A stretch of 64,000 nucleotides of DNA from NCBI RefSeq assembly GCF_900105625.1, contig NZ_FNSD01000001.1:310001-374000 (forward strand), read 5' to 3'. The notes below the pieces were generated by a model. The model did no database searches. It saw nothing but the letters and a program-made list of their open reading frames with translations, and had not been told where the DNA came from. The translations under genes and the position numbers were made by a program. The stretch is from Terriglobus roseus. GTDB taxonomy: Bacteria > Acidobacteriota > Terriglobia > Terriglobales > Acidobacteriaceae. Shown here piece by piece: positions 8,865 to 34,991 of this stretch (position 1 is its first letter; the number at the start of each line of letters is the position of its first letter).

Positions 8865-8867
8865 CCG

Positions 8868-8880
8868 CCCCCTTTCGGAA
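8868..8880 (-). promoter_or_regulatory. Partial copy of the CCGAAnnAGGGG motif at the kinase 2 start
   Basis: On the minus strand TTCCGAAAGGGGG, compared with TTCCCCGAAAGAGGGGGG at 20519. It overlaps the ribosome-binding region of kinase 2, so resemblance could be chance; if bound it would block translation initiation or elongation. Confidence 0.3.
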
Positions 8881-8958
8881 CGGTGTATCGCCGAGTAGGG
8901 TCTTCTGCTTGCGCGAGATCCACTGCAAGAATCGTTGAGAACGCGTTCCGGGTGGACC

Positions 8959-8974
8959 TACCCGAATTAGGGGG
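8959..8974 (+). promoter_or_regulatory. 7-2-7 motif copy A, candidate NarL-type operator
   Basis: TACCCGA-AT-TAGGGGG, preceded by GACC. The 19-base stretch GACCTACCCGAATNAGGGG is shared with the site at 21251, the only difference being T/G at one position. It lies 59 bases upstream of kinase 3 and 95 upstream of kinase 2. Confidence 0.6.
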
Positions 8975-8980
8975 AGAGAT

Positions 8981-8996
8981 TCTCCTCGTTCGGGCG
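8981..8996 (-). promoter_or_regulatory. 7-2-7 motif copy B, inverted next to copy A
   Basis: On the minus strand CGCCCGA-AC-GAGGAGA, agreeing with the best copies in the CCCGAAyGAGG core. It faces copy A with a six-base gap, giving a paired site in the divergent kinase 2/kinase 3 promoter region. Confidence 0.5.
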
Positions 8997-9032
8997 ATAC
9001 GAAGACATGATGTGTTTGAGCATGCTTAGAAT

Positions 9033-12000
9033 ATGCCCTTCTTCGGTGTTGATCGAGCCTGCCTACGAACCTGTTGTACTTTTTTCATCATCTGGCTGCT
9101 CTCCGGCTCGGTTTCCGCAGCAGCCGTTGGCCCGGCAGCAACCCCTGAGACGCCCTTGCAAGGGCTGCAGCATTCGCAGTGGACCAGCCGCGATGGCGCT
9201 CCTGCGAGCATCATGGCAATGGAGCAGACCTCCGACGGTGTGCTGTGGTTGGGATCACGACAGGGGCTCTACCTGTTTGATGGACTGCACTTCACGCGCG
9301 TGACGGTTGTAGACGAGAGCTCCTGGTCGCCCGCAGACATTTACGCGTTGAAGTCCATGCCGAACGGCGACATGTGGATCGGCCAGTTCTCAGGCGGAGC
9401 CATGTTGCTCCGCAACGGTAAGGTCACTCGGTTTCGCGAGGGATTGCCGAAGGCGGGGGTCACACAATTCTTCCTCGATCGCCACGGAAACTTCTGGGCG
9501 TCCACCACGCAGGGGCTCGCACGCTTCGATGGCAAGATGTTTCATCCGGCCGGATCAGACTTGGGCCTGCCTATCGGCACATCCGTCACGGCCGCACTCG
9601 ATGGCGCGGGAGACCTTGTCGTTCGAACCAATAACTTCGGTCTGTTCGCATGGAGTTCACGCAGCAAGCGCTTTGAGCCAGTCGCAGACGGACGACTCGG
9701 CTACATGCCACTTGCACTGGATGCGGGTGGCCGCCTCTGGGAGAGCACGAAGGATGGCCTGTTGCTGCTGGGCCCGGGAAACGTGCCGTCCGGCCCCCTT
9801 GTGCCATGGTCGTACTCCTTCTTCTCGCCGGACATTCGCTTCGATCACACGGGTGCGCTCTGGGTGACAGAACGCGGCTTTGGTGTACGCCGCGTGCTGC
9901 CGATGCTGAGAGGAGCACCTCTGAATGCTGCAGCCCGCATGCAGACCTTCCACGAGAAGGATGGCCTGACATCCGAGCAGACGATGTCGAACTTCGTAGA
10001 CAAGGACGGCGACATCTGGGTCGGCACCGAACGTGGACTGGACCGCTTTCATGCAGGCACTGTAGATCGAATTGATGGACCGATTGGTTCCGCCTACCTG
10101 GGCGTGCAGCCGGCCGGCGGCGGCTCCGCGTGGCTCGCTTCCTTCACAGGCGGTGCCTGGTTACGAGACGCCGCCGGCAAAATCACGCGCAGTTCTTCGC
10201 TACCAGCTGCTGTAACCCGAATCACTTCGCTCACTGCGGACGGCAAAGAGGGCCTGTGGATCGCATCCGACGCTGGCATCGGTCTGCTGACTGCCAGCAA
10301 ATGGACGGTGTTCCAGCTAGACCCGGTGATGGTCAAGCAGACCATTACCGCCATGGTTCCGGATGGAAGCGGTGGGTTTTGGGCCGCAGTCAACACAGTG
10401 GGGGCGATGCACTGGGACGGCCACGGCTGGTCCAGGCCTGAGGGCTTGTCTCACATGGCGATTACATCACTTGCTCACACCGGTCACAATCTCTACGTGG
10501 GCACACGGGACGGTGTCCTGCTGACCTATCAGGACGAGACACGAACCCAGGACAGGCAATCGCTCACTCTTGGTCCCGTGACGGTGATCACGCCCTCAGC
10601 CGAAGGTGTGTGGGTCGGTGGAGAAAAGGGCATCGGCTTGTGGAATGGCCAAGAGCTGCAGGTCGTCGCGACGCAGAGTGTGCCGCCGATCTATCGCATT
10701 TCGGGACTTCTCCTAGACGCGAATCGTGATCTTTGGCTGAATACTGCAGTGGGCGTCGCCCATCTGAGTCGCGGTGCCGTGCAGGCTGTACTCGACGGAA
10801 CTGCCATGACCGTTTCGGCGGAAGTCTACGACGCTTCCGATGGGGTCGAGGGATTGCCGTTGCGATCTTTTCTGACACCGACCGCAGCCGCACTCTCGTC
10901 GGGCGTCATGATCTTCACGACGCAACTAGGTGCATACGCCGTCGATCCCGCATCGCTAAGCATTCGCGCACCAGCACCGGCGCCCTACCTGACCAGCCTG
11001 CGTGCCGATGGTGAGGCGTTGGAGTTGCAGACGGAGTTGCGGCCGAAGATCCACACGTTAGAAGTCGATTACGGCGCCGCGGCCCTGCGGGACGTGCAAC
11101 GCCTGCGTTTCCGCTACCGTCTTCGCGGCTTCGATAAAACGTGGCAGGATGCCGGTAACCGGCGCGAGGCCGTCTTTACAGATCTTCCGCCGGGATCGTA
11201 CACCTTCGAAAGTGAAGCGTCCTACGACCAGAAGACCTGGAGCCCACCGTCTGCACCGCTGCCGGTGGTGATCCCACCCTCTGCGATGCAGCGGCGGTCG
11301 GTGCGTGCGGCGATTTTCGTTACTGCGCTTCTGCTCACATGGCTGCTGTTCCGCTGGCGAATCGCGCAGATCTACAAGGTGGCTCAGCTTCGCTTGCAGG
11401 AGCGTGTGCAGGAGCGCGAAAGAATCGCGCGGGATCTGCATGACACACTCCTGCAGGGTGTGCAGGGACTTATCCTGCGCTTCGGCGCCATCTCTCAAGG
11501 GCCGCAACTCGATGCCACGCTACGGCAGAAGATGCAGCAGGCCCTAACCCTCGCGGAGTCTGTTGCAACCGAAGGACGAGATCGCGTCCGAGATCTTCGC
11601 AGCACCAGCGCGGATCCGAACGAGTTGGAAGAGATTCTGGCGGAAGCAGGCACTTTGCTCGCGCTCTCTGGAACCGCCACCTTCGCGTGGAGCACTCGAG
11701 GACACAAGCTTCCGCTGCACCCGCTGATCCTGGATGAGGCTTTCTGCGTTGGGAGAGAGGCACTGCAGAACGCGTATCAGCATGCGGGAGCGACGAGGAT
11801 CTCCATCCTGCTGGAGTATTCCCCTGAACAACTGAAGTTGACCGTGAGTGATAACGGCAAAGGTCTGGGAGTTGCGGCTGAAGAGGCAAGCCGGCCCGGT
11901 CATTGGGGTATTGCCGGCATGCGCGAGAGAGCCACCCGTATCGGCGGTCAGCTTTCCATTCGCTCCGACCTCGGACGAGGCACGGACGTCAGCCTCTGCG

Positions 12001-12086
12001 TCCCGGGATCGATTGCTTATCCGAAGTCCACACCATCACGCTGGTGGGATATGTTCAGCACACTGAAGACCCAGGAGCTCCGTTGA
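9033..12086 (+). CDS. Propeller/Y_Y_Y sensor histidine kinase 3
   Basis: 1017 aa, third paralogue of the cluster. Signal peptide (CTFFIIWLLSGSVSAAAVG), propeller blades (DGVLWLGSRQGLYLFDG, DGDIWVGTERGLDRFH), Y_Y_Y domain (FRYRLRGFDKTWQDA), membrane helix (VRAAIFVTALLLTWLLF), HisKA_3 RERIARDLHDTLLQG with His803, and HATPase (REALQNAYQHA, SDNGKGLG). It lacks a receiver. Kinases 1-3 are clearly related but differ strongly in their propellers, which suggests three different periplasmic inputs into a common output. It ends just before a perfect palindromic terminator shared with the converging hydrolase gene. Confidence 0.93.
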   Translation: MPFFGVDRACLRTCCTFFIIWLLSGSVSAAAVGPAATPETPLQGLQHSQWTSRDGAPASIMAMEQTSDGVLWLGSRQGLYLFDGLHFTRVTVVDESSWSPADIYALKSMPNGDMWIGQFSGGAMLLRNGKVTRFREGLPKAGVTQFFLDRHGNFWASTTQGLARFDGKMFHPAGSDLGLPIGTSVTAALDGAGDLVVRTNNFGLFAWSSRSKRFEPVADGRLGYMPLALDAGGRLWESTKDGLLLLGPGNVPSGPLVPWSYSFFSPDIRFDHTGALWVTERGFGVRRVLPMLRGAPLNAAARMQTFHEKDGLTSEQTMSNFVDKDGDIWVGTERGLDRFHAGTVDRIDGPIGSAYLGVQPAGGGSAWLASFTGGAWLRDAAGKITRSSSLPAAVTRITSLTADGKEGLWIASDAGIGLLTASKWTVFQLDPVMVKQTITAMVPDGSGGFWAAVNTVGAMHWDGHGWSRPEGLSHMAITSLAHTGHNLYVGTRDGVLLTYQDETRTQDRQSLTLGPVTVITPSAEGVWVGGEKGIGLWNGQELQVVATQSVPPIYRISGLLLDANRDLWLNTAVGVAHLSRGAVQAVLDGTAMTVSAEVYDASDGVEGLPLRSFLTPTAAALSSGVMIFTTQLGAYAVDPASLSIRAPAPAPYLTSLRADGEALELQTELRPKIHTLEVDYGAAALRDVQRLRFRYRLRGFDKTWQDAGNRREAVFTDLPPGSYTFESEASYDQKTWSPPSAPLPVVIPPSAMQRRSVRAAIFVTALLLTWLLFRWRIAQIYKVAQLRLQERVQERERIARDLHDTLLQGVQGLILRFGAISQGPQLDATLRQKMQQALTLAESVATEGRDRVRDLRSTSADPNELEEILAEAGTLLALSGTATFAWSTRGHKLPLHPLILDEAFCVGREALQNAYQHAGATRISILLEYSPEQLKLTVSDNGKGLGVAAEEASRPGHWGIAGMRERATRIGGQLSIRSDLGRGTDVSLCVPGSIAYPKSTPSRWWDMFSTLKTQELR

Positions 12087-12095
12087 TCGTGAGGC

Positions 12096-12149
12096 AAATT
12101 GCAACACAGAACAGCGCAGCCATGGCTGCGCTGTTCTGTGTTGCAATTT
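12096..12149. terminator. Perfect 54-bp palindrome, bidirectional terminator
   Basis: Two 27-base arms centred on CCATGG at 12120-12125 are perfectly complementary with no spacer; the 3' side runs into TTTT on the plus strand and the mirror AAA serves the minus strand. It sits between convergent stops (kinase 3 and hydrolase), so bidirectional termination is the simple reading. Its length and perfection are unusual. Confidence 0.85.
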
Positions 12150-12157
12150 TCGATTGC

Positions 12158-12979
12158 TTAGCTCTGTATGAACGCCAGCAGATCCTTGTTGATGGTCTCC
12201 GCCTCGCTGACCGGCATGCCATGAGGAAATCCCTTGTAGACCTTTAACTGAGCGCCCTTCACGAGCTTTGCAGTCAACTCACCCGAAGCTGCGAAGGGAA
12301 CAATCTGGTCATCATCGCCCTGCATCACGAGCGTGGGGATATCCATCTTTGCCAGATCGGCGTGGAAGTCCGTCTCAGAGAACTGCTTGACGGTGTCGTA
12401 CTGGCTCTTGACGCTGCCCATCATGCCCTGCATCCAGAAGCTCTGGCGAATGCCGATCGAATCCTTCGCACCGGGGCGGTTGTAACCGAAAAAGGGTCCT
12501 GTAAGGTCGAGATAGAACTGGGAGCGATTGCCGGCAACGCCGCTGCGGATCCCGTCCAGCGCTTCGATCGGTGTGCCGTACGGATTGGATTCTGACTTCA
12601 GCATGATGGGAGGTACCGCGCTGACGAGCACAGCCTTCGCGACACGCTTTGAACCGTGGCGGCCGATGTAACGCGCAACCTCGCCGCCGCCGGTGGAGTG
12701 GCCAACCATGATCATGTCCCTTAGGTCCAGGTGCTCGATGAGTTCTGCAAGATCGTCGGCATACACGTCCATAGTGTTGCCATCCCACGTCTGCTCAGAA
12801 CGGCCATTTCCACGACGGTCATGCGCGATGACGCGGTAGCCGCGTTCGCCGAAGTACAACATCTGCGCGTCCCACGCGTCGGCCGACAGAGGCCAGCCGT
12901 GTGAAAAAACGATGGGCTGCCCTTCGCCCCAATCCTTGAAATACAACGAAACGCCGCTCTTCGTGACAAACGTGCTCAT
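12158..12979 (-). CDS. Alpha/beta hydrolase, non-haem chloroperoxidase/arylesterase type
   Basis: 273 aa serine hydrolase of the cofactor-free haloperoxidase/esterase family. Seen: [16 protein letters not shown] oxyanion region, nucleophile elbow GHSTGGGE, acid in GDDDQIVP and catalytic His in GFPHGMP near the end. No signal peptide. The ATG at 12979 has AAAGGAG six bases upstream; an upstream in-frame ATG at 13021 lacks one. A copy of the 7-2-7 motif lies 89 bases upstream, so it may belong to the regulon of the NarL-type protein encoded next to it. The natural substrate is unknown; chloroperoxidase activity in this family is usually a side reaction. Confidence 0.88.
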
Positions 12980-13067
12980 ATCCGCTCCTTTGATCTGGTG
13001 TTTTACAACCACCATGATCATGAGCCGTCGGAGAAGATGACCCCAGCCTCTTCAGGTGAGTCGGATA

Positions 13068-13083
13068 CACCCTCATTCGAGTG
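13068..13083 (-). promoter_or_regulatory. 7-2-7 motif copy C upstream of the alpha/beta hydrolase
   Basis: On the minus strand CACTCGA-AT-GAGGGTG, sharing the CGAATGAGGG core exactly with the 21251 site. The element is itself nearly palindromic (CTCAnTCGAnTGAG). It lies between the regulator gene and the hydrolase gene. Confidence 0.5.
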
Positions 13084-13114
13084 AGGCGGGACTTCTCTGC
13101 CCCATGCCTCTCGA

Positions 13115-13747
13115 CTAATGGAGATCTAGAAAGCCCCGGCGCATCGCAATGGTCACTGCATGTGTGCGATCGTTCGCGCCAAGTTTGGCCAGGATGCTCT
13201 TCATATGCGCCTTCACAGTGTCTTCGGTGATGGCGAGCTTGTCGGCCACAGCTTTGTTGGCATTGCCGGCGGCGACGTGCAATAGAACTTCAATCTCGCG
13301 AGCGGTCAGTGCATCGTCTGCGGCATGCTCCGCCATCTCCGCCGCGACCTCGGCCGGTACCCGCCGGTGCCCAGCGTGGACCGCACGGATGGTATCGAGC
13401 ATGTACATCCGCAGCATGCTTTTCAGGAGGTATCCCGACGCCCCGGCCTTCATCGCCCGCAGCGCCTGCACATCACCCTTGTAAGTCGTCAGGACAATCA
13501 TGCGTGCATTCGGCGAACGGTCACGAATGATCGCCATTGCTTCCAGTCCATTAATGTCCGGCAGACGAAGATCCATAAGAGTCACATCGGGCTTGTGAAT
13601 CTGAAAGAGCTCGACCGCCTCACGTCCCGTGGACGCTTCCGCAACCAGAATCATGTCGGGCTGCGTGGACAACATGGCGCGAACCCCCTGACGGAAGACT
13701 GGATGGTCATCCACTGCCATAACCCGGATTGGTTTCTTTTCCGTCAT
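13115..13747 (-). CDS. NarL/LuxR-family response regulator A
   Basis: 210 aa DNA-binding response regulator. Receiver domain 8-122: acidic pair in MAVDDHP, phospho-acceptor Asp59 in VTLMDLRLPD, Thr in VLTTYKG, Lys in YLLKS. C-terminal LuxR-type HTH (LTAREIEVLLHVAAGNANKAVADKLAITEDTVKAH in the family pattern). ATG at 13747 is preferred because AGGA is six bases upstream; the ATG two codons earlier touches it. Strongly similar along its whole length to the regulator at 20610, including the recognition helix, so both should bind the same site. Partners are probably the three receiver-less kinases at 2.6-12 kb. Confidence 0.92.
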   Translation of the reverse strand: MTEKKPIRVMAVDDHPVFRQGVRAMLSTQPDMILVAEASTGREAVELFQIHKPDVTLMDLRLPDINGLEAMAIIRDRSPNARMIVLTTYKGDVQALRAMKAGASGYLLKSMLRMYMLDTIRAVHAGHRRVPAEVAAEMAEHAADDALTAREIEVLLHVAAGNANKAVADKLAITEDTVKAHMKSILAKLGANDRTHAVTIAMRRGFLDLH

Positions 13748-13846
13748 CTTCATTCCTCATCACGTTTCTCGACACTTGAATCGTCAGGATAACGCTCGCT
13801 TTCGTCCGTTCAACCTTCGATCGTCTTCGACCACTCCAGGGCAAGG

Positions 13847-14233
13847 TCACGACACATGTAGTCCCAACCGCGGTTCGGTGCTTAGAGAAAGGCGGACCTG
13901 TTGCAGCAATCGGGCAGGGTGAAGCGGCTTACGCAAAAGTGTGCAGCGCGAATCGCGCTTCTGGAGCATCTGCCACTCCCGGTCGCACTCCTGAAGATCC
14001 GAAGAGAACAGGATCACGCTGCAGTCGATGCGACTATGAGCCTCCATCGCCAGGTCGATGCCGGACATACGGCCCATGCGGAAATCTGTAAGGAGCAGGC
14101 GTGGCGACTTTCCGATGCTGGCCAGAGCGTGCTCTGCGGAGAAGAAAGTCTCCGCACTGTAGCCATGGTTACGCAGGATAATCGCGAGTGTTTCTGCAAT
14201 GATGCGTTCGTCATCGACGACAAAGATATCCAT
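13847..14233 (-). CDS. Receiver-only response regulator
   Basis: 128 aa single receiver domain with no output domain. Seen: VVDDER acidic pair, Asp50 in LLLTDFRMG, Ser pair in ILFSSDL and Lys in LLRKPLHP. ATG at 14233 has GGAG five bases upstream; a longer frame reaching 14443 would overlap the FAD monooxygenase and encodes nothing like a domain, so it is rejected. It follows the monooxygenase in the same direction, 148 bases away. It may act as a phosphate sink or relay for the local kinases, or through protein contact; this is inference. Confidence 0.8.
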   Translation of the reverse strand: MDIFVVDDERIIAETLAIILRNHGYSAETFFSAEHALASIGKSPRLLLTDFRMGRMSGIDLAMEAHSRIDCSVILFSSDLQECDREWQMLQKRDSRCTLLRKPLHPARLLQQVRLSLSTEPRLGLHVS

Positions 14234-14381
14234 GCCAGCTCCAGTGGGAAGGTCTGCTCCCATCATGGCGGCTGGGTATTCCTTGCGCAGCCCCCGTAAG
14301 AGCGCAACCAACCCTGCTCTTTCGAGGTACGTCGAGACCACCGTATAGCGCAAACCGATACAGGCCAGCGCGACCTTGCAC

Positions 14382-15506
14382 TTACTCGCTTGCTGCAAAG
14401 CTTCGTCCAAGGCGTTGTCCATACGCGGCGATCGCAGTGCCAACAGGGTGGCGCTGCAGGTTGTAAAGGTTCAACGCCTCTTCGACAGTCTCGCTTTGTT
14501 CCAGCGCATCGCGCAGAGCCATTGCGTCGCCCGCAGCTTTGGATACTCCCATGGCGGTGTGAGGTCGAACAACGAAGGCCGCATCCCCTAGAAGAGCGAC
14601 CCGTCCGCGATTCATTTGCGGAGCTCCGTAATCGAAGATCGCCTGTAGAAAGGGACGTGGCTCGCTGCGTACTAGTTCAGCAAGAACAGGCGGCAGCAAC
14701 GATTGGGCTGCGTCTGCGAGCTCCCGCACGGTGGCATTCGATAACCCGCCGGGTGGCGCGGAGTACAGCCGGTCGTCCCCTGCCTCGGTTTGCAGCGCCG
14801 CCTGCAATTGTTCGCTGTCTAGAGCACGATACCAAACCCAGTTGTACCGCCTGCGTCCGGGCGCGATACTGCCATCCGGGCCTGCGACAAGATAGCCCAG
14901 ATATTGCGACCGAAAGGCATTGAGGAAGGCGAAACGTTCTGAGAGCAGGTCGGCCGCAGCCTTCGAGAGTCGTGTCTCGGGCGACAACCCACGGAACGCT
15001 GCATAACCGGCATAACGAAGTTCCGTTCCTGGAGCAACCATCTGCCGGACAACGGAGCCAATACCATCAGCGCCAATCACAACATCTGCAGTCCTTTGTG
15101 CACCGTCCTCGAAACGAACGGTAGCCTCGGAGGCGCTCGATGCAACGTGCACAATGACTTTCCCCGAGTGATACTCTGCGTCGGCTACGAGACTTCGGAA
15201 GGCCGAGAACAACAGGTCCCAGGACATCTGCGATTGGGGCGACGGGATTGTCTCGCTGATCGCCCCAGATCGATCAAGAAAGATACGCTCGTGCGCGATG
15301 ACTCCGGAACTCAGGACATCGCGCCGACCTACCTCTTCAAGGATCGCCGCAACTTCGCTCTGCGGCACAAGCCCTGCACCCTTGCCGGCCAAGCCGGAAA
15401 CTGACCGCTCATAGAGGACAACATCCCACCCGGCCCGCTGAAGCAGCACGCCCGCAAACAGCCCGCCCACCGAGCCGCCCGCGAGGATCGCCTTACCGGG
15501 CTTCAA
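14382..15506 (-). CDS. FAD-dependent aromatic monooxygenase
   Basis: 374 aa group A flavoprotein hydroxylase. Seen: FAD-binding AILAGGSVGGLFAGVLLQRAG at the N terminus with the trailing Glu in LYER, the middle DG motif GADGIGSVVRQ, and the GD motif LLGDAAFVVRPHTAMG. These place it with para-hydroxybenzoate hydroxylase-fold enzymes; overall it recalls hydroxypyridine or salicylate-type monooxygenases, but the substrate cannot be read from sequence. Starts with TTG overlapping the TGA of the amidohydrolase (TTGA), so the two are translationally coupled. Part of the Mo-hydroxylase operon. Confidence 0.88.
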   Translation of the reverse strand: MKPGKAILAGGSVGGLFAGVLLQRAGWDVVLYERSVSGLAGKGAGLVPQSEVAAILEEVGRRDVLSSGVIAHERIFLDRSGAISETIPSPQSQMSWDLLFSAFRSLVADAEYHSGKVIVHVASSASEATVRFEDGAQRTADVVIGADGIGSVVRQMVAPGTELRYAGYAAFRGLSPETRLSKAAADLLSERFAFLNAFRSQYLGYLVAGPDGSIAPGRRRYNWVWYRALDSEQLQAALQTEAGDDRLYSAPPGGLSNATVRELADAAQSLLPPVLAELVRSEPRPFLQAIFDYGAPQMNRGRVALLGDAAFVVRPHTAMGVSKAAGDAMALRDALEQSETVEEALNLYNLQRHPVGTAIAAYGQRLGRSFAASE

Positions 15507-16531
15507 CGCGACACCAGCTCAGACGGCAGCTTCAATATTCGTTCCGCGTTGCCGGACGCGATCTTTCGCAGGTCATCGGGAGTGATCTCCAGATGCTCAA
15601 GAAAATGAGCGCCTGCGACGTTTGATCGATACGGATAGTCGACGGAATACAGCAACCGATCTGCGCCGACCAGTTCCCTCGCACAACGAAAAGGAGCTTG
15701 AGTGAAGTAGCCACTTGTCGTCACCGAAAAGTGATCGAGGAAGTACTCGGAGACACTGCGTCGCAGATGAGTCACCGACGTCGGAAGTCCATCCTGCGCC
15801 CGCATCAGCGAATAAGGTAGATGCTCGCCCATGTGGCCGATGATGATCTTCAACCTCGGAAAACGGTCGAAGGTACCAGCGAGGATCAGCCGCAGACAAT
15901 GCATGCCGAGTTCCGCATGCCACCCCCAAGCCGCAGTCGAGAGGAAGTAAGCGCTCGCCTCCGGCAGGCCACGGAAGTACAAGTCCTGGATCGCCAAGGA
16001 GGGCGCGGTCGGGTGAATATAGAGTGGCACATCAAGCGCTTCGGCCGCTTCGAAGAGCGGCGCAAATCGTGGTGCGTCCAGAAAGTCACCGCCCTCTGTG
16101 CCGTTGAGAAAGCCGCCAACGCAGCCCAGCCGCTCCACGCCGCGTTCGAGTTCTTTTGCTGCCGCGGCAGGATCTTTCAGCGACAGGCTGGCGAACATGC
16201 GCAGACGCTTCGGGTGCCTCTGGGTCGCTGCATAAGCTTCGTTATTCGCATCGTGAACGAGGCTGGTGGCGTCCGCCGACGTAAGCTGCTCCTGGCCTGT
16301 TGCAGCAAGTGAAAGTACCTGAAGATCCACGCCGCCTTCGTCCATCGCAGCGAGGCGTCGCTCATCAAGATCAAGCAGCTTCTCCTCCAGCGCAGCGGAG
16401 GTTCCCAGAGCCGGTGTGAACGGAGCTGTCGCTCGCAGAAAGTCAGGTGTCGTAAAGTGCTCTTCGAGAGTGATTACCCGGTACAAGGTCGGATCCCCGA
16501 TGCCGGACACTGGCTGCTGCTGAATCGCCAT
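15503..16531 (-). CDS. Amidohydrolase-2 family (de)carboxylase, gamma-resorcylate decarboxylase-like
   Basis: 342 aa TIM-barrel metal enzyme of the ACMSD/amidohydrolase-2 family. Seen: ITLEEHF near the N terminus (metal-ligand Glu and His), DERRLAAMDEGGVDLQVLS, VPLYIHP, IIGHMGEHLPY and LLYSVDYPY (catalytic Asp). The block order and spacing match nonoxidative 2,6-dihydroxybenzoate (resorcylate) decarboxylases, which remove CO2 from hydroxylated aromatic acids. It lies eight bases after the Mo-hydroxylase FAD subunit gene and overlaps the monooxygenase gene, so decarboxylation between two ring hydroxylations is a reasonable model. A hydrolytic role is possible too. Confidence 0.85.
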   Translation of the reverse strand: MAIQQQPVSGIGDPTLYRVITLEEHFTTPDFLRATAPFTPALGTSAALEEKLLDLDERRLAAMDEGGVDLQVLSLAATGQEQLTSADATSLVHDANNEAYAATQRHPKRLRMFASLSLKDPAAAAKELERGVERLGCVGGFLNGTEGGDFLDAPRFAPLFEAAEALDVPLYIHPTAPSLAIQDLYFRGLPEASAYFLSTAAWGWHAELGMHCLRLILAGTFDRFPRLKIIIGHMGEHLPYSLMRAQDGLPTSVTHLRRSVSEYFLDHFSVTTSGYFTQAPFRCARELVGADRLLYSVDYPYRSNVAGAHFLEHLEITPDDLRKIASGNAERILKLPSELVSR

Positions 16532-16539
16532 GGTTCTCC

Positions 16540-17538
16540 TTACCGCGTCTGTGGTCCGCTGCTGGCGAGACGCAGCGTGCGGACCACGCTGTGCTTCCCA
16601 AGGTCAATCTTGAAATTGTTTTGGCTGAGCGGCACGGCGCCTTGAAGCGCGAGCTCCGCTGCTTCGTGGAAGGCCTCATCGTTCGCGGGCTTGCCCAGAA
16701 GGCTCAACTCCGCCTCACGCACTCGCCACGGCATGGGTGCGACACCGCCAAGAGCAAGCGCAGCGCGACGGATGGTTCCGTCTTCGCCCCGCTCGAGGCC
16801 AGCCGCTACGGAGACAAGCGCGAAGGCGTAGCTGTGACGATCCCGCACCTTCAAGTACCAGGAGTTGTTGCGCAACCGGGATGGTGGCAACTCGATGCCA
16901 AGGATGAGTTCATGCGGGTGCAGCGCGTTATCGAACTGCGGCGTATCGCCCGGAAGGCGAAAGAACTCCTGCAGCGGAATGTACCGCTTCCCATCGGGAC
17001 CCTGCACATGTACCACGGCATCCAGGATGGCGAGGGCGACGGCCATATCGGACGGATGGATCGCAACACACTGCTCGCTCGCTCCGAAGAGTGCATGTTC
17101 GCGATTGAAGCCATCTTTCGCGGCGCAACCGCTGCCAGGTATGCGCTTGTTGCAGGCTTGGAAGCCGGTCTCCATGAAGTACGGGCAGCGAGTGCGCTGC
17201 AACAGGTTGCCACCCGCAGTGGCCATGTTGCGCAGCTGCGTTGTGGCACCACTCAGGATGGCCTGGGAGACGACTGGGTATTGCGAACGAATGAGATGGT
17301 GGTTGGCGATTGCGCTGTTGCTGATGCCGGCCTCTACGAACACACCGCCCTGCGGCGTGGCTACAATCTTCGAAAGGCCGAGCCGGCGAAGGTCGACCAA
17401 CGCTGGCGGTTGCTCGACCGTTCCCTTCATCAGATCGACAAGATTGGTGCCGCCAGCAAGATACTTCCCACCGGTTGCGACAACCTTCCGGATCGCGTCT
17501 TCAACAGATGTCGCATGGTGAAACTGAAAGGTGTTCAT
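16540..17538 (-). CDS. Molybdenum hydroxylase FAD/[4Fe-4S] subunit (PaoB/YagS-like)
   Basis: 332 aa medium subunit carrying FAD and passing electrons from the Fe-S subunit. Seen: N-terminal FAD-binding GGKYLAGGTNLVDLMKG and ATAGGNLLQRTRCPYF; four cysteines between RTRCPYF, QACNKR, GSGCAAKDG and SEQCVAIHPSD match the extra [4Fe-4S] loop of PaoB and 4-hydroxybenzoyl-CoA reductase type subunits. ATG at 17538 with GGGGAG upstream overlaps the stop of the 2Fe-2S gene by four bases; the frame upstream of this ATG lies within that gene. Confidence 0.92.
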   Translation of the reverse strand: MNTFQFHHATSVEDAIRKVVATGGKYLAGGTNLVDLMKGTVEQPPALVDLRRLGLSKIVATPQGGVFVEAGISNSAIANHHLIRSQYPVVSQAILSGATTQLRNMATAGGNLLQRTRCPYFMETGFQACNKRIPGSGCAAKDGFNREHALFGASEQCVAIHPSDMAVALAILDAVVHVQGPDGKRYIPLQEFFRLPGDTPQFDNALHPHELILGIELPPSRLRNNSWYLKVRDRHSYAFALVSVAAGLERGEDGTIRRAALALGGVAPMPWRVREAELSLLGKPANDEAFHEAAELALQGAVPLSQNNFKIDLGKHSVVRTLRLASSGPQTR

Positions 17539-18104
17539 CGTCTTGCTCCCCGCTCGACCGCTTGAATCGCGGCGACGATGTTGGCATAGGCACCACATCG
17601 GCAAATATTTCCCGCCATGCGTTCACGCGCTTCCTGATCGCTCAACCCCATGCGCCCGGTGGTCACTTGGTCGCGCGTGCCCTCGAACGACACCATGCTC
17701 AGGTCACCGCGCGCATGCTCGTGCAACATGGCGTGCGCGGAAGAAATTTGTCCCGGCGTGCAATAACCGCACTGAAAACCATCGTGGTCCAGAAACGCCT
17801 GCTGCAGGTCACCTAAGGTTCCATCGTGCGCGAGACCTTCCACGGTGAGCACTTCACAGCCATCGATGGAGGCTGCAAGCGTCAGGCAACTGACAACGCG
17901 TTCCCCATCGACAGAGAGTGTGCAGGCTCCGCACAATCCGTGATCGCATCCCTTCTTGGTTCCAGTAAGGCGCAGACGCTCGCGCAGAAGATCGAGCAGC
18001 GTGGTCCTGGGGTCGATCGTGAGGGTGACGAGTTCCCCGTTGATACGAAGGCGCGTCTCAATCTCACGCAGACGAGTGCTTCCGCGCAGTTCAGTGTTGT
18101 TCAT
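17535..18104 (-). CDS. Molybdenum hydroxylase 2Fe-2S subunit (PaoA/YagT-like)
   Basis: 189 aa small subunit with two [2Fe-2S] clusters. Seen: plant-ferredoxin-type ligands in KKGCDHGLCGACTL followed by the single Cys in VVSCLTL, and the second cluster in FQCGYCTPGQ and NICRCGAY. Unlike E. coli PaoA it has no twin-arginine leader (starts MNNTELRGSTRLREIE), so the complex is probably cytoplasmic. It overlaps its neighbours by four bases on both sides. Confidence 0.94.
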   Translation of the reverse strand: MNNTELRGSTRLREIETRLRINGELVTLTIDPRTTLLDLLRERLRLTGTKKGCDHGLCGACTLSVDGERVVSCLTLAASIDGCEVLTVEGLAHDGTLGDLQQAFLDHDGFQCGYCTPGQISSAHAMLHEHARGDLSMVSFEGTRDQVTTGRMGLSDQEARERMAGNICRCGAYANIVAAIQAVERGARR

Positions 18105-20395
18105 GGCTTCACTCCTGCCGGTCCGTAGGGAGCCATGAGCTGCTCCAGTGTGATGGGAAGGTTACGCAGGCGCTTGCCAGTTGCGTGGAAGATTGCGTTC
18201 GCGATCGCCGCAGGCACGCCGCAGGTGCCGATCTCACCAATGCCTCGCACCCCGATGGGATCGAGCGCGTAATCCGGCGATTCGATGAAGTGAATATCGA
18301 ACTCGGGACGGTCCGCATGCGTTGGCAGGTAGTACTCGCCGATGAGCTGTGCTGTCATCGTGTCGTATGGGACCTGCTCCAACAGCGCCATGCCAAGGCC
18401 GAAGGTGATGCCGCCCATGATCTGGCTGCGTGCAAGCTTGGGATTCAACACACGCCCACAGTCGAAGACTCCCACCCAGCGAGTGACGGTCGCGCGACCT
18501 ATCTCCTCGTCCACTTCCACCTCGCAGAACTGTGCACCGAAAGACTGGAAGGCAAACTCGTCCTGGTCACCCGCAGTCGCCTGCACATCGAAGCTGAGCT
18601 TCTCCGTCACCGCATTGCCGGGCAGCAACTGCAAGAGCTCCCGAACAGTGAGTGCAGTCGCGTCTATTGTTGAACTCACGAGACCGTTGTCCAGCTTCAG
18701 AGCGGCTGGATCATGCTGGTAGAAAGGAGACGCCGGGATCGCCGTCAACAGTTGAAGGAGATGCATCTGCCACCTTTGCGCTGCGAGGTGCACGGCAGAG
18801 CCAACCGTCGCGGTGGTCTGCGATGCACCGCTATACGGCGCACCGGGGAAGCCGGAGTCTCCAGACAAGAATTTAACCTGCTCCAGGGGCAGCCCCGCCG
18901 CATCTGCCGCAACCTGCGTCATCACAGTGCGGACGCCGTTCCCCACTTCGTGTGTGGCAGAAGCGAAAGTGACATTGCCCAATGAATCTGTGGTGACACG
19001 GCACCCTGCAGCCATGCGCCGACCGGGATAGGTTGCCGTTGCAACACCCCAGCCGACTTTGACACCGTCACGTTCCATCGAACGCGGCTCAACCGATCGG
19101 CGCTCCCAACCAAACTGAGCAGCTCCCTGTGTGTAGCATTCCAGCAGATGCTTGGTGGACCACGGCTTTCCGCTGGCCTGGTCCATGGGGGCGTGGTTGC
19201 GGACGCGTAACTCAATCGGATCCAGGTTGGCAGCGTATGCAAGCTCATCCATCGCGACCTCCAGCGCAAAAAGCCCTGGTGCCTCGCCGGGTCCACGCAT
19301 GAAGCAGGGCGTGGGGCCATTGATGCGCGCGGTGCGATGCGACACCACCAGGCGCGGCGACTGATATAGGAAGCGCGTCGAGAGTCCTGCCGGTTCGCAG
19401 AAGTGCGCGACCGTTGAGGTTTCGGTCAATGTGTGATGCTCGGTGCTTGCGATCCTCCCTTCCGTATCTGCGTGGATGTCAAGCGTTTGCGCCGTGCGCG
19501 GGCGATGGCCCGTAGAAGAAAACATCTGATCGCGCGTAAGCACCAACTTGACGGGGCGACTGACTTCGCGGGAGGCCAGCGCAGTCAAGACAACATGCAT
19601 CCACAGGAAGCTCTTCGAGCCAAAGGCACCGCCCACAAGCGGCGAAAGAACACGAATCTTCTCCTCCGGCATCTTCAGGTACGCAGCAAGAGCGGCGCGT
19701 TCGCCGATGATCCAGCGTGTGCTGTCGTGCACAGTCAAAGAGTCCCCGTCCCAATGCGCGATGCAAGCAGATAGCTCAATGGGATAGTGGGCATTGATCG
19801 GCGTGGTGTACCGCGAATGCACGTGCACCGGCGCGCTCGAAGCTTCGGCGGGCCCACGTGCGTCCTGGAGCTTCTCCTCCACCAGCTTCACGAAGTGATC
19901 CGGCAGATAGCTGCCGTGCCGTACTGCCCCGTCGTGTTCATCCGGCGCAACCGGCGCCTCGAGCACTGCCTTTGCAGACAGCAACGCAGGCGAGGTCTCG
20001 TAGTCCACATCGAATTGCGCTGCGGCGAAGGTGGCGTTCTCAAAACTATCAGCCACAACCAGCGCCAGATGTTGACCGACATGCTGCACCGTCAGGTCAG
20101 AGAGAGGTGGTCTGCGTTCCAGCGGCAGGTCGAACGTTAGTTCGCGAGGCAGCACCTGCAGCGCGGGGCAGTTCAAGGGCGTAAGAACGAACGACACCCC
20201 AGGCGCGGCAAGAGTGCGCTGGGTCGCCGTCTCCAGAGAAGCCGCCGTCACTCGTCCGCTCGGTATCTCCGATTGGACCAATACCGCGTGAAGCAGATCC
20301 GCAAGATGGTAGTCGGCAGTATAGAGTGCCGTCCCACTCACCTTCCCGTGCCCCTCGACCCGGTTCAAGTCGGTTCCAACTAGTTTCGTTGCCAT
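18101..20395 (-). CDS. Molybdenum hydroxylase Moco-binding large subunit (PaoC/YagR-like)
   Basis: 764 aa large subunit of the xanthine oxidase family, the site of substrate hydroxylation. Seen: GHGKVSGTALYTADY opening, GGAFGSKSFLWMH, CFMRGPGEAPGLFALE, GASQTTATVGSAV and the C-terminal RGIGEIGTCG that holds the catalytic Glu. The closest architecture is the aldehyde-oxidising PaoC type with a cytosine-dinucleotide cofactor, but a heterocycle substrate is equally possible. ATG at 20395 gives the family N terminus (MATKLVGTDLNRVEG). Gene order here is large-small-medium, the reverse entry of E. coli paoABC. First gene of a coupled operon running to 14382 and perhaps to 13847. Confidence 0.93.
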   Translation of the reverse strand: MATKLVGTDLNRVEGHGKVSGTALYTADYHLADLLHAVLVQSEIPSGRVTAASLETATQRTLAAPGVSFVLTPLNCPALQVLPRELTFDLPLERRPPLSDLTVQHVGQHLALVVADSFENATFAAAQFDVDYETSPALLSAKAVLEAPVAPDEHDGAVRHGSYLPDHFVKLVEEKLQDARGPAEASSAPVHVHSRYTTPINAHYPIELSACIAHWDGDSLTVHDSTRWIIGERAALAAYLKMPEEKIRVLSPLVGGAFGSKSFLWMHVVLTALASREVSRPVKLVLTRDQMFSSTGHRPRTAQTLDIHADTEGRIASTEHHTLTETSTVAHFCEPAGLSTRFLYQSPRLVVSHRTARINGPTPCFMRGPGEAPGLFALEVAMDELAYAANLDPIELRVRNHAPMDQASGKPWSTKHLLECYTQGAAQFGWERRSVEPRSMERDGVKVGWGVATATYPGRRMAAGCRVTTDSLGNVTFASATHEVGNGVRTVMTQVAADAAGLPLEQVKFLSGDSGFPGAPYSGASQTTATVGSAVHLAAQRWQMHLLQLLTAIPASPFYQHDPAALKLDNGLVSSTIDATALTVRELLQLLPGNAVTEKLSFDVQATAGDQDEFAFQSFGAQFCEVEVDEEIGRATVTRWVGVFDCGRVLNPKLARSQIMGGITFGLGMALLEQVPYDTMTAQLIGEYYLPTHADRPEFDIHFIESPDYALDPIGVRGIGEIGTCGVPAAIANAIFHATGKRLRNLPITLEQLMAPYGPAGVKP

Positions 20396-20520
20396 AGCAT
20401 CTTCGCCTATCCTTGGTTGCAAAGCTATCCGTGCTGGCAATCAGTGACCACCCCCGGAAGAGCATCACCCTTGTTACTCATTTGAGGGGATAGCCTACAG
20501 CGACTTGCAAGCTTGCGCAT

Positions 20521-20536
20521 TCCCCGAAAGAGGGGG
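20521..20536 (+). promoter_or_regulatory. 7-2-7 motif copy D upstream of response regulator B
   Basis: TCCCCGA-AA-GAGGGGG, the most symmetric copy (TCCCC/GGGGG arms). It lies 74 bases before the regulator start and between it and the divergent Mo-hydroxylase operon, so it could govern either or both. Confidence 0.55.
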
Positions 20537-20609
20537 GCGGTACCAGCGGTCGCATGGCACACTGACGGTACATCCCGCGGGCACCGCGACATCGATTGAG
20601 AGAGCTGCA

Positions 20610-21248
20610 ATGATCAGAGATCCGCTTCATCCCATCCGGATCATGACCGTGGATGATCATCCCGTCTTTCGTGGTGGCGTGGGCGCCATGCTGGATACCC
20701 AGGGTGATATGCAATTGGTGGCCGAAGCCTCTACCGGACGCGAGGCAGTAGATCTGTTCAAGGTTCACCGGCCACAGATCACCCTGATGGACCTGCGTCT
20801 GCCGGACATCAGCGGGTTACATGCCCTGGAGCTGATTCGGCAGGATTTTCCCGATGCACGCGTTATCGTGCTGACGACTTACAAAGGAGACGCCCAGGCA
20901 CTTGGCGCGCTGAAGGCAGGCGCATGCGGCTACCTGCTGAAAAGCATGCTCTGCACACACATGCTCGACACCATCCGCGCAGTCCATGCCGGTCAGAGGC
21001 GCATCCCTCCAGAGATCGCATCGGAGATCGCCGAGCACGCCGGGTACGACGCACTTACGCTGCGCGAAATCGAGGTGCTGCGATGCGTTGCTGCCGGAAA
21101 TGCGAACAAGATGATCGCGGATCAGCTCTCCATCAAGGAAGAGACAGTAAAAGGACACGTCAAGAATGTTCTGTCGAAGCTGGGCGCCAACGACCGGACG
21201 CATGCCGTAACGATCGCCATACGACGTGGCTTCCTGGAGCTGCACTGA
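20610..21248 (+). CDS. NarL/LuxR-family response regulator B
   Basis: 212 aa, close paralogue of the regulator at 13115. Receiver with MTVDDHP, phospho-acceptor Asp61 in ITLMDLRLPD, VLTTYKG and YLLKS; LuxR-type HTH with LTLREIEVLRCVAAGNANK and KEETVKGHVK. ATG at 20610 with GAGAG upstream gives the same N-terminal length as its paralogue; the 35 residues upstream in frame have no family match. Divergent from the Mo-hydroxylase operon. Motif copies lie on both sides of the gene, which suggests autoregulation. Confidence 0.92.
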   Translation: MIRDPLHPIRIMTVDDHPVFRGGVGAMLDTQGDMQLVAEASTGREAVDLFKVHRPQITLMDLRLPDISGLHALELIRQDFPDARVIVLTTYKGDAQALGALKAGACGYLLKSMLCTHMLDTIRAVHAGQRRIPPEIASEIAEHAGYDALTLREIEVLRCVAAGNANKMIADQLSIKEETVKGHVKNVLSKLGANDRTHAVTIAIRRGFLELH

Positions 21249-21250
21249 CC

Positions 21251-21266
21251 TACCCGAATGAGGGGA
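21251..21266 (+). promoter_or_regulatory. 7-2-7 motif copy E upstream of the Old Yellow Enzyme
   Basis: TACCCGA-AT-GAGGGGA, preceded by GACC, starting three bases after the stop of regulator B and 96 bases before the oxidoreductase start. It is the best match to the consensus and nearly identical over 19 bases to copy A, 12.3 kb away. Confidence 0.62.
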
Positions 21267-21361
21267 ACGAAGTATCTCCAAGTGGGGCTGCGGCAGTCCG
21301 AATGCGGAGCGCATGATGGCAGTGCTGGTCCCAATCTCTGCTTAAACCCACGAGGAAGTCT

Positions 21362-22507
21362 ATGAGCCACCCCTCCCATCTGTTCGCACCCTTCGCCATG
21401 CGCAGCGTAGTGCTGCCTAACCGAATTGCGCTCTCGCCCATGTGCCAGTACTCTGCCGTGGACGGCATGGTGAATGACTGGCATTTGGTTCACCTTGGAA
21501 GCAGAGCAGTAGGCGGCGCGGGACTGATCCTCACGGAGGCGACTGCCGTCTCACCGGAAGGCAGGCTCTCGCCGGGTGACCTTGGACTCTGGTCTGACGA
21601 TCACATCTCCGGGCTGGAACGATGTGTGAACTTCATCCACCAGCAGGGAGCCGCTGCCGGCATCCAGCTTGGTCATGCCGGCCGCAAGAGCAGTATTGCA
21701 CCTCCGTGGGAACAGACGCGCGTTGTGCCCGCGGCTGAGGGCGGTTGGGAAGAGATTCTCGCTCCTTCCGCATTCGCCTTCAGTGAACGCCATGCTGTGC
21801 CGCGGAGCCTTTCGGTCAGCGAGATTGGCCGCATCCAAGATGACTTCCGCACCGCTACAGAACGAGCCTACCGGTCCGGCTTTGACGTGATTGAGTTGCA
21901 CGCTGCACACGGCTATCTCTTTCACCAGTTCCTCTCTCCTCTCAGCAATACACGTGGCGACGAGTATGGTGGAACGTTCGACAACCGTGTACGGATGCTC
22001 CTTGAAACCGTTCGACTCATTCGGGCCGTATGGCCCGAGCACCTGCCGTTAATCGTCCGCATCTCCGCAACCGACTGGCTGGAATATGACGGTCACGCGC
22101 ACCCCGAAGGCCTTGGCTGGATGATGCAGGACAGCCTGCGCCTGGTGCCGCTGCTGCGTGATGCGGGCGTCGATCTTGTGGATGTGAGTTCGGGTGGCAA
22201 CGTAGCGCAGCCTGCAATTCCGGTGGGCGCTGGCTATCAGACGGCCTTCTCTGCGCAGATTCGCGAGCAGACAGGTGTGGCGACGGGGACCGTCGGGATG
22301 ATCACCTCCCCACAACAGGCAGATCATGCCATCCGGACCGGACAGGCTGACCTGGTGCTGCTTGCACGCGAGCTACTCAGGAATCCTTATTGGCCGATCG
22401 AGGCTGCTCGACAGCTCAAAGTAGAGGTTCCCTGGCCGGTGCAGTACGTCCGCGCGGCCGATGGACGCAAGCCTGCAAGGCTCCCCTGGGCGCTAGGCCC
22501 GCGATAG
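21362..22507 (+). CDS. NADH:flavin oxidoreductase, Old Yellow Enzyme family (YqjM/thermophilic-like class)
   Basis: 381 aa FMN enzyme that reduces activated C=C bonds using NAD(P)H. Seen: LFAPFAMRSVVLPNRIALSPMCQYS with the class-specific Cys28, QLGHAGRKSS substrate-binding His, GFDVIELHAAHGYL and NTRGDEYGG, all typical of the YqjM class. RBS GAGGAAG precedes ATG. The upstream motif copy suggests control by the NarL-type regulators. A role in detoxifying electrophiles or in reducing intermediates of the neighbouring aromatic pathway is inference. Confidence 0.92.
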   Translation: MSHPSHLFAPFAMRSVVLPNRIALSPMCQYSAVDGMVNDWHLVHLGSRAVGGAGLILTEATAVSPEGRLSPGDLGLWSDDHISGLERCVNFIHQQGAAAGIQLGHAGRKSSIAPPWEQTRVVPAAEGGWEEILAPSAFAFSERHAVPRSLSVSEIGRIQDDFRTATERAYRSGFDVIELHAAHGYLFHQFLSPLSNTRGDEYGGTFDNRVRMLLETVRLIRAVWPEHLPLIVRISATDWLEYDGHAHPEGLGWMMQDSLRLVPLLRDAGVDLVDVSSGGNVAQPAIPVGAGYQTAFSAQIREQTGVATGTVGMITSPQQADHAIRTGQADLVLLARELLRNPYWPIEAARQLKVEVPWPVQYVRAADGRKPARLPWALGPR

Positions 22508-33107: not shown

Positions 33108-33201
33108 GGAGTCATCCCTCCTTCGTGGGAAATGGCTCTGGGTAGAGGGTTAGCCGTGCCACTCTCTTCGAGCGCGACTAACCCGGATTCGACGGGCAGA
33201 T

Positions 33202-33748
33202 TTAGGAGGGTGGGAATTTCCGGAACATCTTCGCCAGATTCTGGGTCAGGTGCTTCTCGTTATGCGAAGCATTGTTAGACAAGTCGTTGCTCTCTCTACC
33301 GCGCCAGACCAACTTATGCGACTTGCTGTCGAAGACATCCACGACGAGTGTGCCGACCTTTGTGTCCTCGGTCGTCGTGGTCGCCGTGCCAAAGCCGCCC
33401 GCACCGCCGCCAAAGCCGCCCCAGCCCCAGCCGCCAAAACCGCCTCCACCGAAGCTGTTATAGAAAGTCTGCGTGGTGGGTTGGTCCTTTGTCGTTTCGA
33501 ATGCGATCAGGGTCGTGTCGCCGTCGGTATCCACGCGCTCCCACCCCTTCGCAGCCAGCTGTGCATCAATGCCCCGTCTGATGCGATCGGTCCAAAGGCC
33601 ATCGCGTCCCTTCACCTTGCCCCAGGCATAGGTCTTGTACTGCGAAAAACTGCGCGGAGTGGTCATAGTCGACTGAAACCTGCGCAAACGCCGGCGCGAC
33701 GCTGAGGAGCGTGGCAAGCATCGTGAACGAGACAAACTGTTTTTTCAT
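33202..33748 (-). pseudogene. DUF4136 secreted protein with a +1 frameshift in a T5 run
   Basis: The start at 33748 has AGGAGG upstream and a signal peptide (MKKQFVSFTMLATLLSVAPAFAQ), then VSVDYDHSAQF. After this the frame is lost; removing one base from the five-A run at 33645-33649 (TTTTT on the coding strand) restores FSQYKTYAWGKVKGRDGLWTD and an intact DUF4136 domain to the stop at 33202, including a glycine-rich loop (GGGGFGGWGWGGFGGGAGG) and VGTLVVDVFDSKSHKLVWRG. Either an assembly/sequencing error, a recent mutation or phase-variable slippage. The family is periplasmic/outer-membrane associated, function unknown. Confidence 0.85.
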
Positions 33749-33809
33749 TGGAATTTCCTCCTGTATTTCTGGGCTACGAGTGCTGACAACTTCGTGCTGG
33801 CTTCGCGGG

Positions 33810-34805
33810 TTACGCGAAGCTTGAATTGAGTCGCGCTCCGCCGGACAACGCCATGCGACCGATGTCGATATCTCCCGAGCGTTCAATCCCCAGCCGCTGC
33901 ATCTTTGAGATCAGCGTCGTTCGTGGCAGACCCAGCCGTGCCGCTGCGCCGCGCGGGCCTCCGATAATCCAGGAAGTCTTGTCCAGAATCTGCAGAATGT
34001 GATCGCGCTCCACGCCAAGCAGCGTATGCCTGGTGCCAGCGCCGCTGGTTTCCACAAGCTTCCGCATCTCAGCCGCACGGGGAGTCAAGACAGAACCGCT
34101 ACTAACGATCACAGCGCGCTCAATAAAGTTCTGCAGTTCGCGAATGTTGCCGGGCCAGTGATAACGCTCCAAGGCGTCCAACAACTCCTTGGGAATGACC
34201 AGATGCTGCTTTCCGGCCTTGGCTACGACACGCTTCAGGAAGTGATTGCAAAGTGCTTCAATGTCCTCCGCGCGATCGCGCAGCGCGGGCAGTTGGATCG
34301 GAAATACGCTCAGCCTGTAGAAGAGATCGGCGCGGAAGCGTCCGTCCTCGACCATCTGCGCCAAGTCTTGGTTCGTTGCCGCAACGATGCGCACATCCGC
34401 ATGGATAGATCTTGTACTGCCCAGGCGTTCGAACGTCTGCTCCTGCAGCACGCGTAACAGCTTCGGCTGCAGTTCCAGAGGCATGTCGCCCAACTCGTCC
34501 AGAAAAAGAGTGCCACCGTTCGCCGACAGGAAGCGGCCCACGGTCTGCGTGACGGCACCAGTAAATGCGCCGCGCTCATGACCGAATAGTTCGCTTTCAA
34601 GCAAGGCAGCGGGTAATGCGGCGCAGTTCAACGCAACAAACGGCCCATTCCGACGCGGGCTGAAGTCGTGCACACACCGGGCGATGACTTCCTTACCGGT
34701 GCCGGTCTCCCCTTGGATCAGTACCGCGCACTGCGCATCCGCAACGGCATAGACGTCCTGGAGCACTTCCTGAAAGCGTGAACTATTCCCCACAGGTGTA
34801 TTCAT
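33810..34805 (-). CDS. Sigma-54 activator lacking a sensor domain (PspF-like architecture)
   Basis: 331 aa AAA+ enhancer-binding protein. Seen: Walker A GETGTGKE, the sigma-54 contact loop GERGAFTGA (as [10 protein letters not shown]), Walker [13 protein letters not shown], sensor and arginine finger region FRADLFYRL, and a C-terminal Fis-type HTH ([25 protein letters not shown]). The AAA+ domain begins almost at residue 1, so there is no receiver, GAF or PAS domain and activity must be controlled by expression or a partner, as with PspF. ATG at 34805 is used; the in-frame ATG at 34853 adds 16 unmatched residues. Confidence 0.9.
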
Positions 34806-34951
34806 CTTGGCTGTCCTTTTCTCGCTTGCTGTCCACAAGATCTGCCGCACCACACGGAACGCAACGCTTGCTCCGTCAGGTCATCCGTCCGATTGCCTGA
34901 AGCATAGGGACCACCAAGCATCACCAACACCCTTGAATGGAGAGCGAAGGT

Positions 34952-34967
34952 TCACCTCGTTCCGGTA
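34952..34967 (-). promoter_or_regulatory. 7-2-7 motif copy F upstream of the sigma-54 activator
   Basis: Minus strand TACCGGA-AC-GAGGTGA, 13 of 16 positions as in copy E, same orientation as the sigma-54 activator gene and 147 bases before it. Confidence 0.5.
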
Positions 34968-34977
34968 GCGGCCTCCC

Positions 34978-34991
34978 TACCCATAAGGGGG
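34978..34991 (+). promoter_or_regulatory. Shortened motif copy G, paired with copy F
   Basis: TACCCATAAGGGGG: the same CCC/GGGG arms but two bases less between them. It lies ten bases from copy F in the opposite orientation, like the A/B pair at 8959-8996, between the sigma-54 activator and the marC remnant. Confidence 0.35.

What the first reader, a model, noticed from the sequence alone, without database searches (positions are those of the whole stretch)
8868..34991. A recurring 16-bp 7-2-7 element that may define a NarL-type regulon
TACCCGA-AT-TAGGGGG (8959), CACTCGA-AT-GAGGGTG (13083, minus), TCCCCGA-AA-GAGGGGG (20521), TACCCGA-AT-GAGGGGA (21251) and TACCGGA-AC-GAGGTGA (34967, minus), with weaker copies at 8996, 8880 and 34978, all lie in intergenic DNA before kinases, regulator B, the OYE, the hydrolase and the sigma-54 activator. 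By eye I saw no copy inside genes. Two inverted heptamers separated by two bases is the known NarL-dimer geometry. Two almost identical NarL-type regulators are encoded among the sites. I infer that this is their operator.
Basis: partly seen in the sequence, partly recalled or inferred. Interest (0 to 1): 0.72.

Follow-up and report, generated by a model that had tools for sequence, protein, structure and literature searches.

The report
Probable NarL-type operators in a gene cluster
A short inverted-repeat DNA element recurs before several genes of one soil-bacterium gene cluster and most likely is the binding site of the cluster's own two-component regulators, an expected kind of switch that has not been tested by experiment.

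Summary
The five claimed 16-bp elements are at the stated places. Copies at >=12/16: 7 in 2.5 kb intergenic, 3 in 32.6 kb genic DNA. There is no genome-wide excess over reversed controls, so any regulon is local. In three relatives, 3 of 10 corresponding promoter regions carry a full-score dyad, against 0.8% of other promoters; over the wider regulator family the upstream enrichment is not significant. Both regulators are NarL-family and keep the two helix lysines that I recall as base contacts in E. coli NarL. Most likely these are operators of the cluster's own NarL-type regulators; binding is inferred. Strict 7-2-7 geometry is not shown: the sites are imperfect palindromes with a conserved asymmetric core, and relatives show 14-16 bp dyads. 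The regulators are about 73% identical, not almost identical. New member of a known kind.

The parts
8959..8974 (+). site 1 TACCCGAATTAGGGGG, divergent intergenic region between two sensor kinases
8981..8996 (-). site 2 CGCCCGAACGAGGAGA, same divergent kinase region
13068..13083 (-). site 3 CACTCGAATGAGGGTG, before the alpha/beta hydrolase gene (start 13021) and after regulator A
20521..20536 (+). site 5 TCCCCGAAAGAGGGGG, before regulator B
21251..21266 (+). site 6 TACCCGAATGAGGGGA (the seed), between regulator B and the OYE gene
34952..34967 (-). site 7 TACCGGAACGAGGTGA, before the sigma-54 activator gene (start 34853)
34978..34991 (.). shorter dyad TACCCATAAGGGGG beside site 7 (4-bp spacer); weak
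13115..13753 (-). regulator A, NarL-family response regulator (Response_reg + GerE), 212 aa
20610..21248 (+). regulator B, NarL-family response regulator, 212 aa, about 73% identical to A
2623..5724 (+). sensor kinase (Reg_prop, Y_Y_Y, HisKA_3, HATPase_c)
5727..8864 (-). sensor kinase (Reg_prop, HisKA_3, HATPase_c; Y_Y_Y just below its cut-off)
9033..12086 (+). sensor kinase (Reg_prop, Y_Y_Y, HisKA_3, HATPase_c)
12158..13021 (-). alpha/beta hydrolase, putative target gene
18101..20440 (-). molybdopterin-binding subunit (PaoC/XdhA-like, below the curated cut-offs), first gene of the leftward run 20440-14382, putative target
21362..22507 (+). Old Yellow Enzyme family oxidoreductase, putative target
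33810..34853 (-). sigma-54 activator, no receiver domain matched, putative target

Best explanation
The elements are operators for NarL-type response-regulator dimers made by the cluster itself (regulator A, regulator B or both). Phosphorylation by one or more of the three neighbouring Reg_prop/HisKA_3 kinases would free the helix-turn-helix domain to bind TACYC-N4-GAGGKGA-like inverted repeats. Binding would tune transcription of the kinase pair, regulator B, the Mo-hydroxylase run, the hydrolase, the OYE and the sigma-54 activator: a local, partly autoregulatory regulon. Shown here: the repeat family, its intergenic placement, dyads of the same kind at some corresponding promoters of relatives, and the NarL-type DNA-binding domain. 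Inferred: binding, which regulator binds, which kinase signals, and the sign of regulation.
For: De novo family of 7 sites, at most 5 in 100 shuffles. 7 intergenic vs 3 genic copies in 2.5 vs 32.6 kb. In three other genomes (G163, G140, Bryocella) 3 of 10 corresponding promoter regions hold a full-score dyad against 0.8% of other promoters; binomial p 6e-5, Fisher combined p 1.2e-4. Arm-pair counts at spacers 4-6 against other spacers, intergenic vs genic, Fisher p: window 0.003; G163+G140 stretches 0.010; other Terriglobia regulator loci 0.0014. The Bryocella regulator promoter holds four dyads with >=9 of 10 arm letters, three of them overlapping. The window matrix gave 17.9 to sites beside regulator relatives in two genus mates (L035, L036) and 18.4 to one before the Bryocella regulator, loci not used to build it. 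Of 20 exact strict-pattern matches in relatives, 18 fall in called genes and the 2 intergenic ones lie beside a regulator relative. TACC-Nk-GGTA in intergenic DNA of the Terriglobia loci: 18 at k=6-9, 13 at the other fifteen spacings, window included, range chosen after seeing the profile; no such peak in genes. Six of 27 Burkholderiales-type loci show TACC-type or TACCCGAAAGAGTA dyads before the regulator relative (L076 and L091 seen by eye in the alignment). Both regulators match the NarL model best and keep lysines aligned with NarL K188/K192 (contact role recalled). E. coli NarL recognises TACYYMT and prefers inverted heptamers two bases apart (passages of PMC4886647 and PMC4549865).
Against: No genome-wide excess over the reversed-pattern control; 21 vs 25 exact matches over the family sample. 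Dyads just upstream of the regulator: Terriglobia 10 vs 5.9 expected, p 0.08; without the window 8 vs 5.3, p 0.17; Proteobacteria 6 vs 5.3, p 0.44; and the control spacers 11-13 gave 8 in the same Terriglobia DNA (near-duplicate loci and L130 left out). Over L032-L098 the window matrix beats the reversed matrix (13 vs 6 hits over 14) but not the mean of 40 column-permuted ones (11.7). Spacer counts are not significant for Proteobacteria (p 0.33), Bryocella alone (0.085) or the own genome's other regulator locus L130 (0.40); in Proteobacteria TACC-N8-GGTA also peaks inside genes. Of 14 hydrolase promoters scored, only that of G163 reaches full score; the window's own is at the 13% level. Regulator A's own promoter has no good site. 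The pattern was written after the G128 and G148 sites had been seen, and the dyad definition after looking at these loci, so both results lean favourable.
Confidence: 0.7

Rival explanations
1. The sites are operators of another dimeric regulator (the sigma-54 activator at 33810-34853, or a regulator encoded elsewhere) that controls the same cluster.
For: Site 7 stands before the sigma-54 activator. Relatives of it (50% or more) also lie in regulator loci L169, L127, L132, L152, L156, L163 and L168, so the two kinds of gene keep company. No call tests binding.
Against: No sigma-54 activator relative was matched in the fetched L125, L061, L123 or L124 stretches, which do hold like sites and a regulator A/B relative; it could lie outside the stretch. 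Promoters of its relatives carry no full-score dyad. The arms resemble NarL heptamers.
Confidence: 0.15
2. Only some copies (such as 21251, 8959, 20521) are functional; the weaker ones are chance resemblance picked up by a permissive consensus.
For: Sites 2, 3 and 4 match the seed at only 12 of 16, the level that three genic copies also reach.
Against: The whole family of seven exceeds all 100 shuffles, and so does the 5-member family at >=13/16.
Confidence: 0.12
3. The repeats act as RNA hairpins or terminators, not as DNA sites.
For: Short GC-rich inverted repeats with GAAA-like loops are common in terminators (general knowledge); the L090 copy lies between convergent genes.
Against: No terminator-like match overlaps a site within 8500-22000, which holds sites 1-6 (site 7 not scanned). 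Six site regions folded as RNA gave z from -0.98 to +1.04, no better than shuffles. The sites stand before genes.
Confidence: 0.03

Closest known systems
E. coli NarL/NarP operators (TACYYMT heptamers, 7-2-7 sites)
   Same: TACYY-type arm, inverted repeat about 16 bp wide, NarL-family regulator with lysines at the positions of K188 and K192
   Different: Right arm mostly GAGGKGA; conserved asymmetric GAAnGA core; 14-16 bp variants in relatives; kinases are Reg_prop type and the putative targets are redox and catabolic genes
MadR and MctR response regulators (NCBIfam NF047785, NF052445)
   Same: Next best full-length models after NarL
   Different: Scores far below the curated cut-offs; their operators were not compared here

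Membership tests
NarL-family (LuxR/GerE) response regulators | Receiver domain followed by a GerE helix-turn-helix | tested here: met
   PF00072 and PF00196 above cut-off in both regulators
NarL-family (LuxR/GerE) response regulators | Conserved phospho-acceptor Asp and switch Lys | tested here: met
   D61 and K111 invariant in nine aligned proteins including E. coli NarL; the roles are recalled
NarL sensu stricto (NF007935) | Score over the curated cut-off of 250 bits | tested here: not met
   155.9 and 151.5 bits
NarL sensu stricto (NF007935) | Base-contacting K188 and K192 (recalled) | tested here: met
   Lysines at both aligned positions in both regulators; V189 is G or A
NarL 7-2-7 operator | Two inverted TACYYMT heptamers two bases apart | tested here: inconclusive
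   Best copy matches the heptamer at 5 of 7 (left arm) and 4 of 7 (right arm), read by eye against the consensus; relatives vary in spacing
Operator of regulators A/B | Binding by the regulator | not testable with these tools
   needs footprint, EMSA or DAP-seq

The most novel reading that the evidence does not exclude
A NarL-type regulator family shared by Acidobacteriaceae and Burkholderiales-type genomes reads a flexible TACC..GGTA dyad of 14-16 bp, and in Acidobacteriaceae it links Reg_prop kinases to a compact redox/aromatic-type gene cluster through a tandem-site, partly self-controlled local regulon.
Probability: 0.3. Interest if true: 0.5.

Novelty: new member of a known kind. Interest (0 to 1): 0.36.

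Why it matters
If true it gives a testable operator and target list for a group of Acidobacteriaceae regulators and kinases whose signal is unknown to me, and a way to look for other regulons of this family. Three paper searches pairing Acidobacteria or Terriglobus with response-regulator or motif terms (listings and starts of abstracts seen) listed no paper whose title or abstract start describes such an operator; that is a narrow search.

Tried and rejected
Whole-genome enrichment: none. Unbiased dyad over-representation over the fetched loci: heterogeneous, with A/T runs and repeats shared by related Duganella loci among the top entries. Column-permuted matrices on loci L032-L098: no clear excess. 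Terminator or RNA-hairpin reading: not favoured. Regulator-upstream enrichment in Terriglobia and Proteobacteria loci: not significant. Alignment of 27 regulator upstream regions of Burkholderiales-type loci showed no single block shared by all; six had TACC-type or TACCCGAAAGAGTA dyads (start codons chosen by script, and two sites that one search listed, in L071 and L073, fall outside its regions). A plasmid search with 20 kb of the second contig to name the organism found nothing; 16S placed it near Bryocella instead. Paper searches: searches found no paper; nothing on this; (Lys188/Lys192 of NarL) nothing useful, so the contact role stays recalled; led to the two papers read in passages. 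Gene calls in relatives are greedy ORF calls by my script, with uncertain starts; some 'genic' sites lie in doubtful short or overlapping ORFs (L072, L131, L172, L266). In one search two pairs of genes that share one intergenic region (G163 regulator/FAD3; G140 OYE/regulator) were counted once each, and kinase promoters were not scored. Near-duplicate loci were dropped before some counts (L200 and L207; also L199, L204, L206; L130 was scored apart, left out of 54 and 71, included in 55).

Full report
Where it is. The window lies in a 4.8 Mb, two-contig genome. Its 16S gene is 94% identical to that of Bryocella elongata and 77-78% to two gammaproteobacteria, so it is an acidobacterium of or near Acidobacteriaceae. 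The cluster holds three Reg_prop/HisKA_3 kinases, two NarL-type regulators, an alpha/beta hydrolase, a receiver-only protein, a flavin monooxygenase-like protein, an amidohydrolase, a three-subunit Mo-hydroxylase, an OYE, an alginate-export-type porin, an oxalate-decarboxylase-family bicupin, an RND efflux system and a sigma-54 activator.

The observation. In 100 dinucleotide shuffles the largest family averaged 4.1 and never exceeded 5; at >=13/16 a seed shifted by 2 bp had 5 members and shuffles at most 3; at >=11/16, 13 against at most 12. Genic DNA of the same stretch (32.6 kb) has 3 copies at >=12/16 of the seed and none at >=13/16, against 7 and 4 in 2.5 kb of intergenic DNA. The sites lie between the divergent kinases (two sites), before the hydrolase, between the Mo-hydroxylase run and regulator B (two sites), before the OYE, and before the sigma-54 activator.

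Genome. In the whole genome the element is no commoner than its reversed control: 176 vs 286 for TACCCGAATNAGGGGN with up to 3 mismatches, 46 vs 45 for TAYYCGAAWGAGGTR with up to 2, 649 vs 750 for TACYCNNNNGAGGKGA with up to 2, 28 vs 27 for its complement with up to 1. The exact pattern TACYCNNNNGAGGKGA occurs four times: 330475 and 331251, both in the window, and 673844 and 3214118, both in called genes. So the regulon, if real, is local.

Relatives. A genus mate (G163: L169, L170) and another genus of the family (G140: L125) carry rearranged versions of the cluster. Their promoters hold like dyads: TACCCGAAGGAGTA before the G163 hydrolase, TACCCACTTAGGGTA in the shared OYE/regulator region of G140, and four dyads before the Bryocella regulator (L061). 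Scored against other promoters of the fetched loci, 3 of 10 corresponding promoter regions in these three genomes carry a full-score dyad, a level reached by 0.8% of other promoters of like length (binomial p 6e-5); the ten fractions combine to p 1.2e-4. The other seven are ordinary: G163 OYE 0.146, regulator/FAD3 0.09, sigma-54 0.076, cupin 0.25; G140 regulator A 0.43, hydrolase 0.19; Bryocella FAD3 0.53. Regions shared by two genes were counted once and kinase promoters were not scored. The dyad definition was settled after looking at these loci, so these p-values are optimistic. Counting arm pairs by spacer, intergenic against genic, gives Fisher p 0.003 for the window, 0.010 for the G163 and G140 stretches, 0.0014 for other Terriglobia regulator loci, but 0.085 for Bryocella alone, 0.40 for the own genome's other regulator locus and 0.33 for Proteobacteria.

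Specificity. Over 150 family genomes the strict pattern TAYYCGAAWGAGGKR has 21 exact matches, 25 for the reversed control. Of the 20 outside the own genome, 18 lie in called genes; the 2 intergenic ones (G128, G148) lie beside a regulator relative of 62-63% identity. That pattern was written after those two sites had been seen. TACC-Nk-GGTA in the intergenic DNA of the Terriglobia regulator loci has 18 copies at k=6-9 and 13 at the fifteen other spacings, with no such peak in genes; the window is included and the range was chosen after seeing the profile. In the Proteobacteria loci the count at k=8 is raised in genes too. Results against: enrichment just upstream of the regulators is not significant, the window matrix over loci L032-L098 does not clearly beat permuted matrices, and hydrolase promoters next to more distant regulators lack a full-score site. 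The signal therefore sits with the closest relatives of regulators A and B rather than with the wider family.

The regulators. A and B are about 73% identical, Response_reg plus GerE, best matched by the NarL model but below its cut-off. Aligned with E. coli NarL they keep the receiver Asp and Lys and the two recognition-helix lysines at NarL 188 and 192, with G or A at 189 (that these contact bases is recalled). Two papers read in passages give the E. coli consensus TACYYMT, the 7-2-7 preference and an engineered site TACCCCTAAAGGGGTA. The window sites share the TACCC arm, but the right arm and core differ and the copies are not exact inverted heptamers. NarL-like describes them; the exact 7-2-7 rule does not.

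Verdict. The element is real and is most likely a NarL-type operator of the cluster's own regulators (0.7). It is an ordinary kind of thing in a little-studied phylum, useful because it names targets and sites for a direct test.

Noticed in passing
L125 5044-6708, L169 13769-15448, L061 10621-12297, L208 7694-9499: In four loci a regulator relative has, next to it or nearby, a fusion of a cyclic-nucleotide-binding domain and a pyridine-nucleotide-disulphide oxidoreductase; none of the 29 window proteins scanned with Pfam carried it.
   Followed up: partly
window 37076-39790: Ribonucleotide reductase is 68% identical to that of Rhodanobacter but only 44% to Bryocella, a closer relative by 16S; possible horizontal transfer.
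   Followed up: no
window 12099-12146: Long inverted repeat (20 pairs counted), terminator-like, between kinase 3 and the hydrolase.
   Followed up: no
L065, L069, L074, L076, L091, L094, upstream of the regulator relative: Six of 27 Burkholderiales-type loci carry TACCTCGATCGAGGTA-like or TACCCGAAAGAGTA dyads before the regulator (L076 and L091 by eye in the alignment).
   Followed up: partly
L123 10923, L124 10687, L172 about 8703: Genus mates carry TATCCGAAAGAGGTG near a regulator relative; in L123 and L124 it stands before a 301 aa gene, which in L123 has sigma-70 region 2 and 4 domains; in L172 it falls in a doubtful called ORF.
   Followed up: partly
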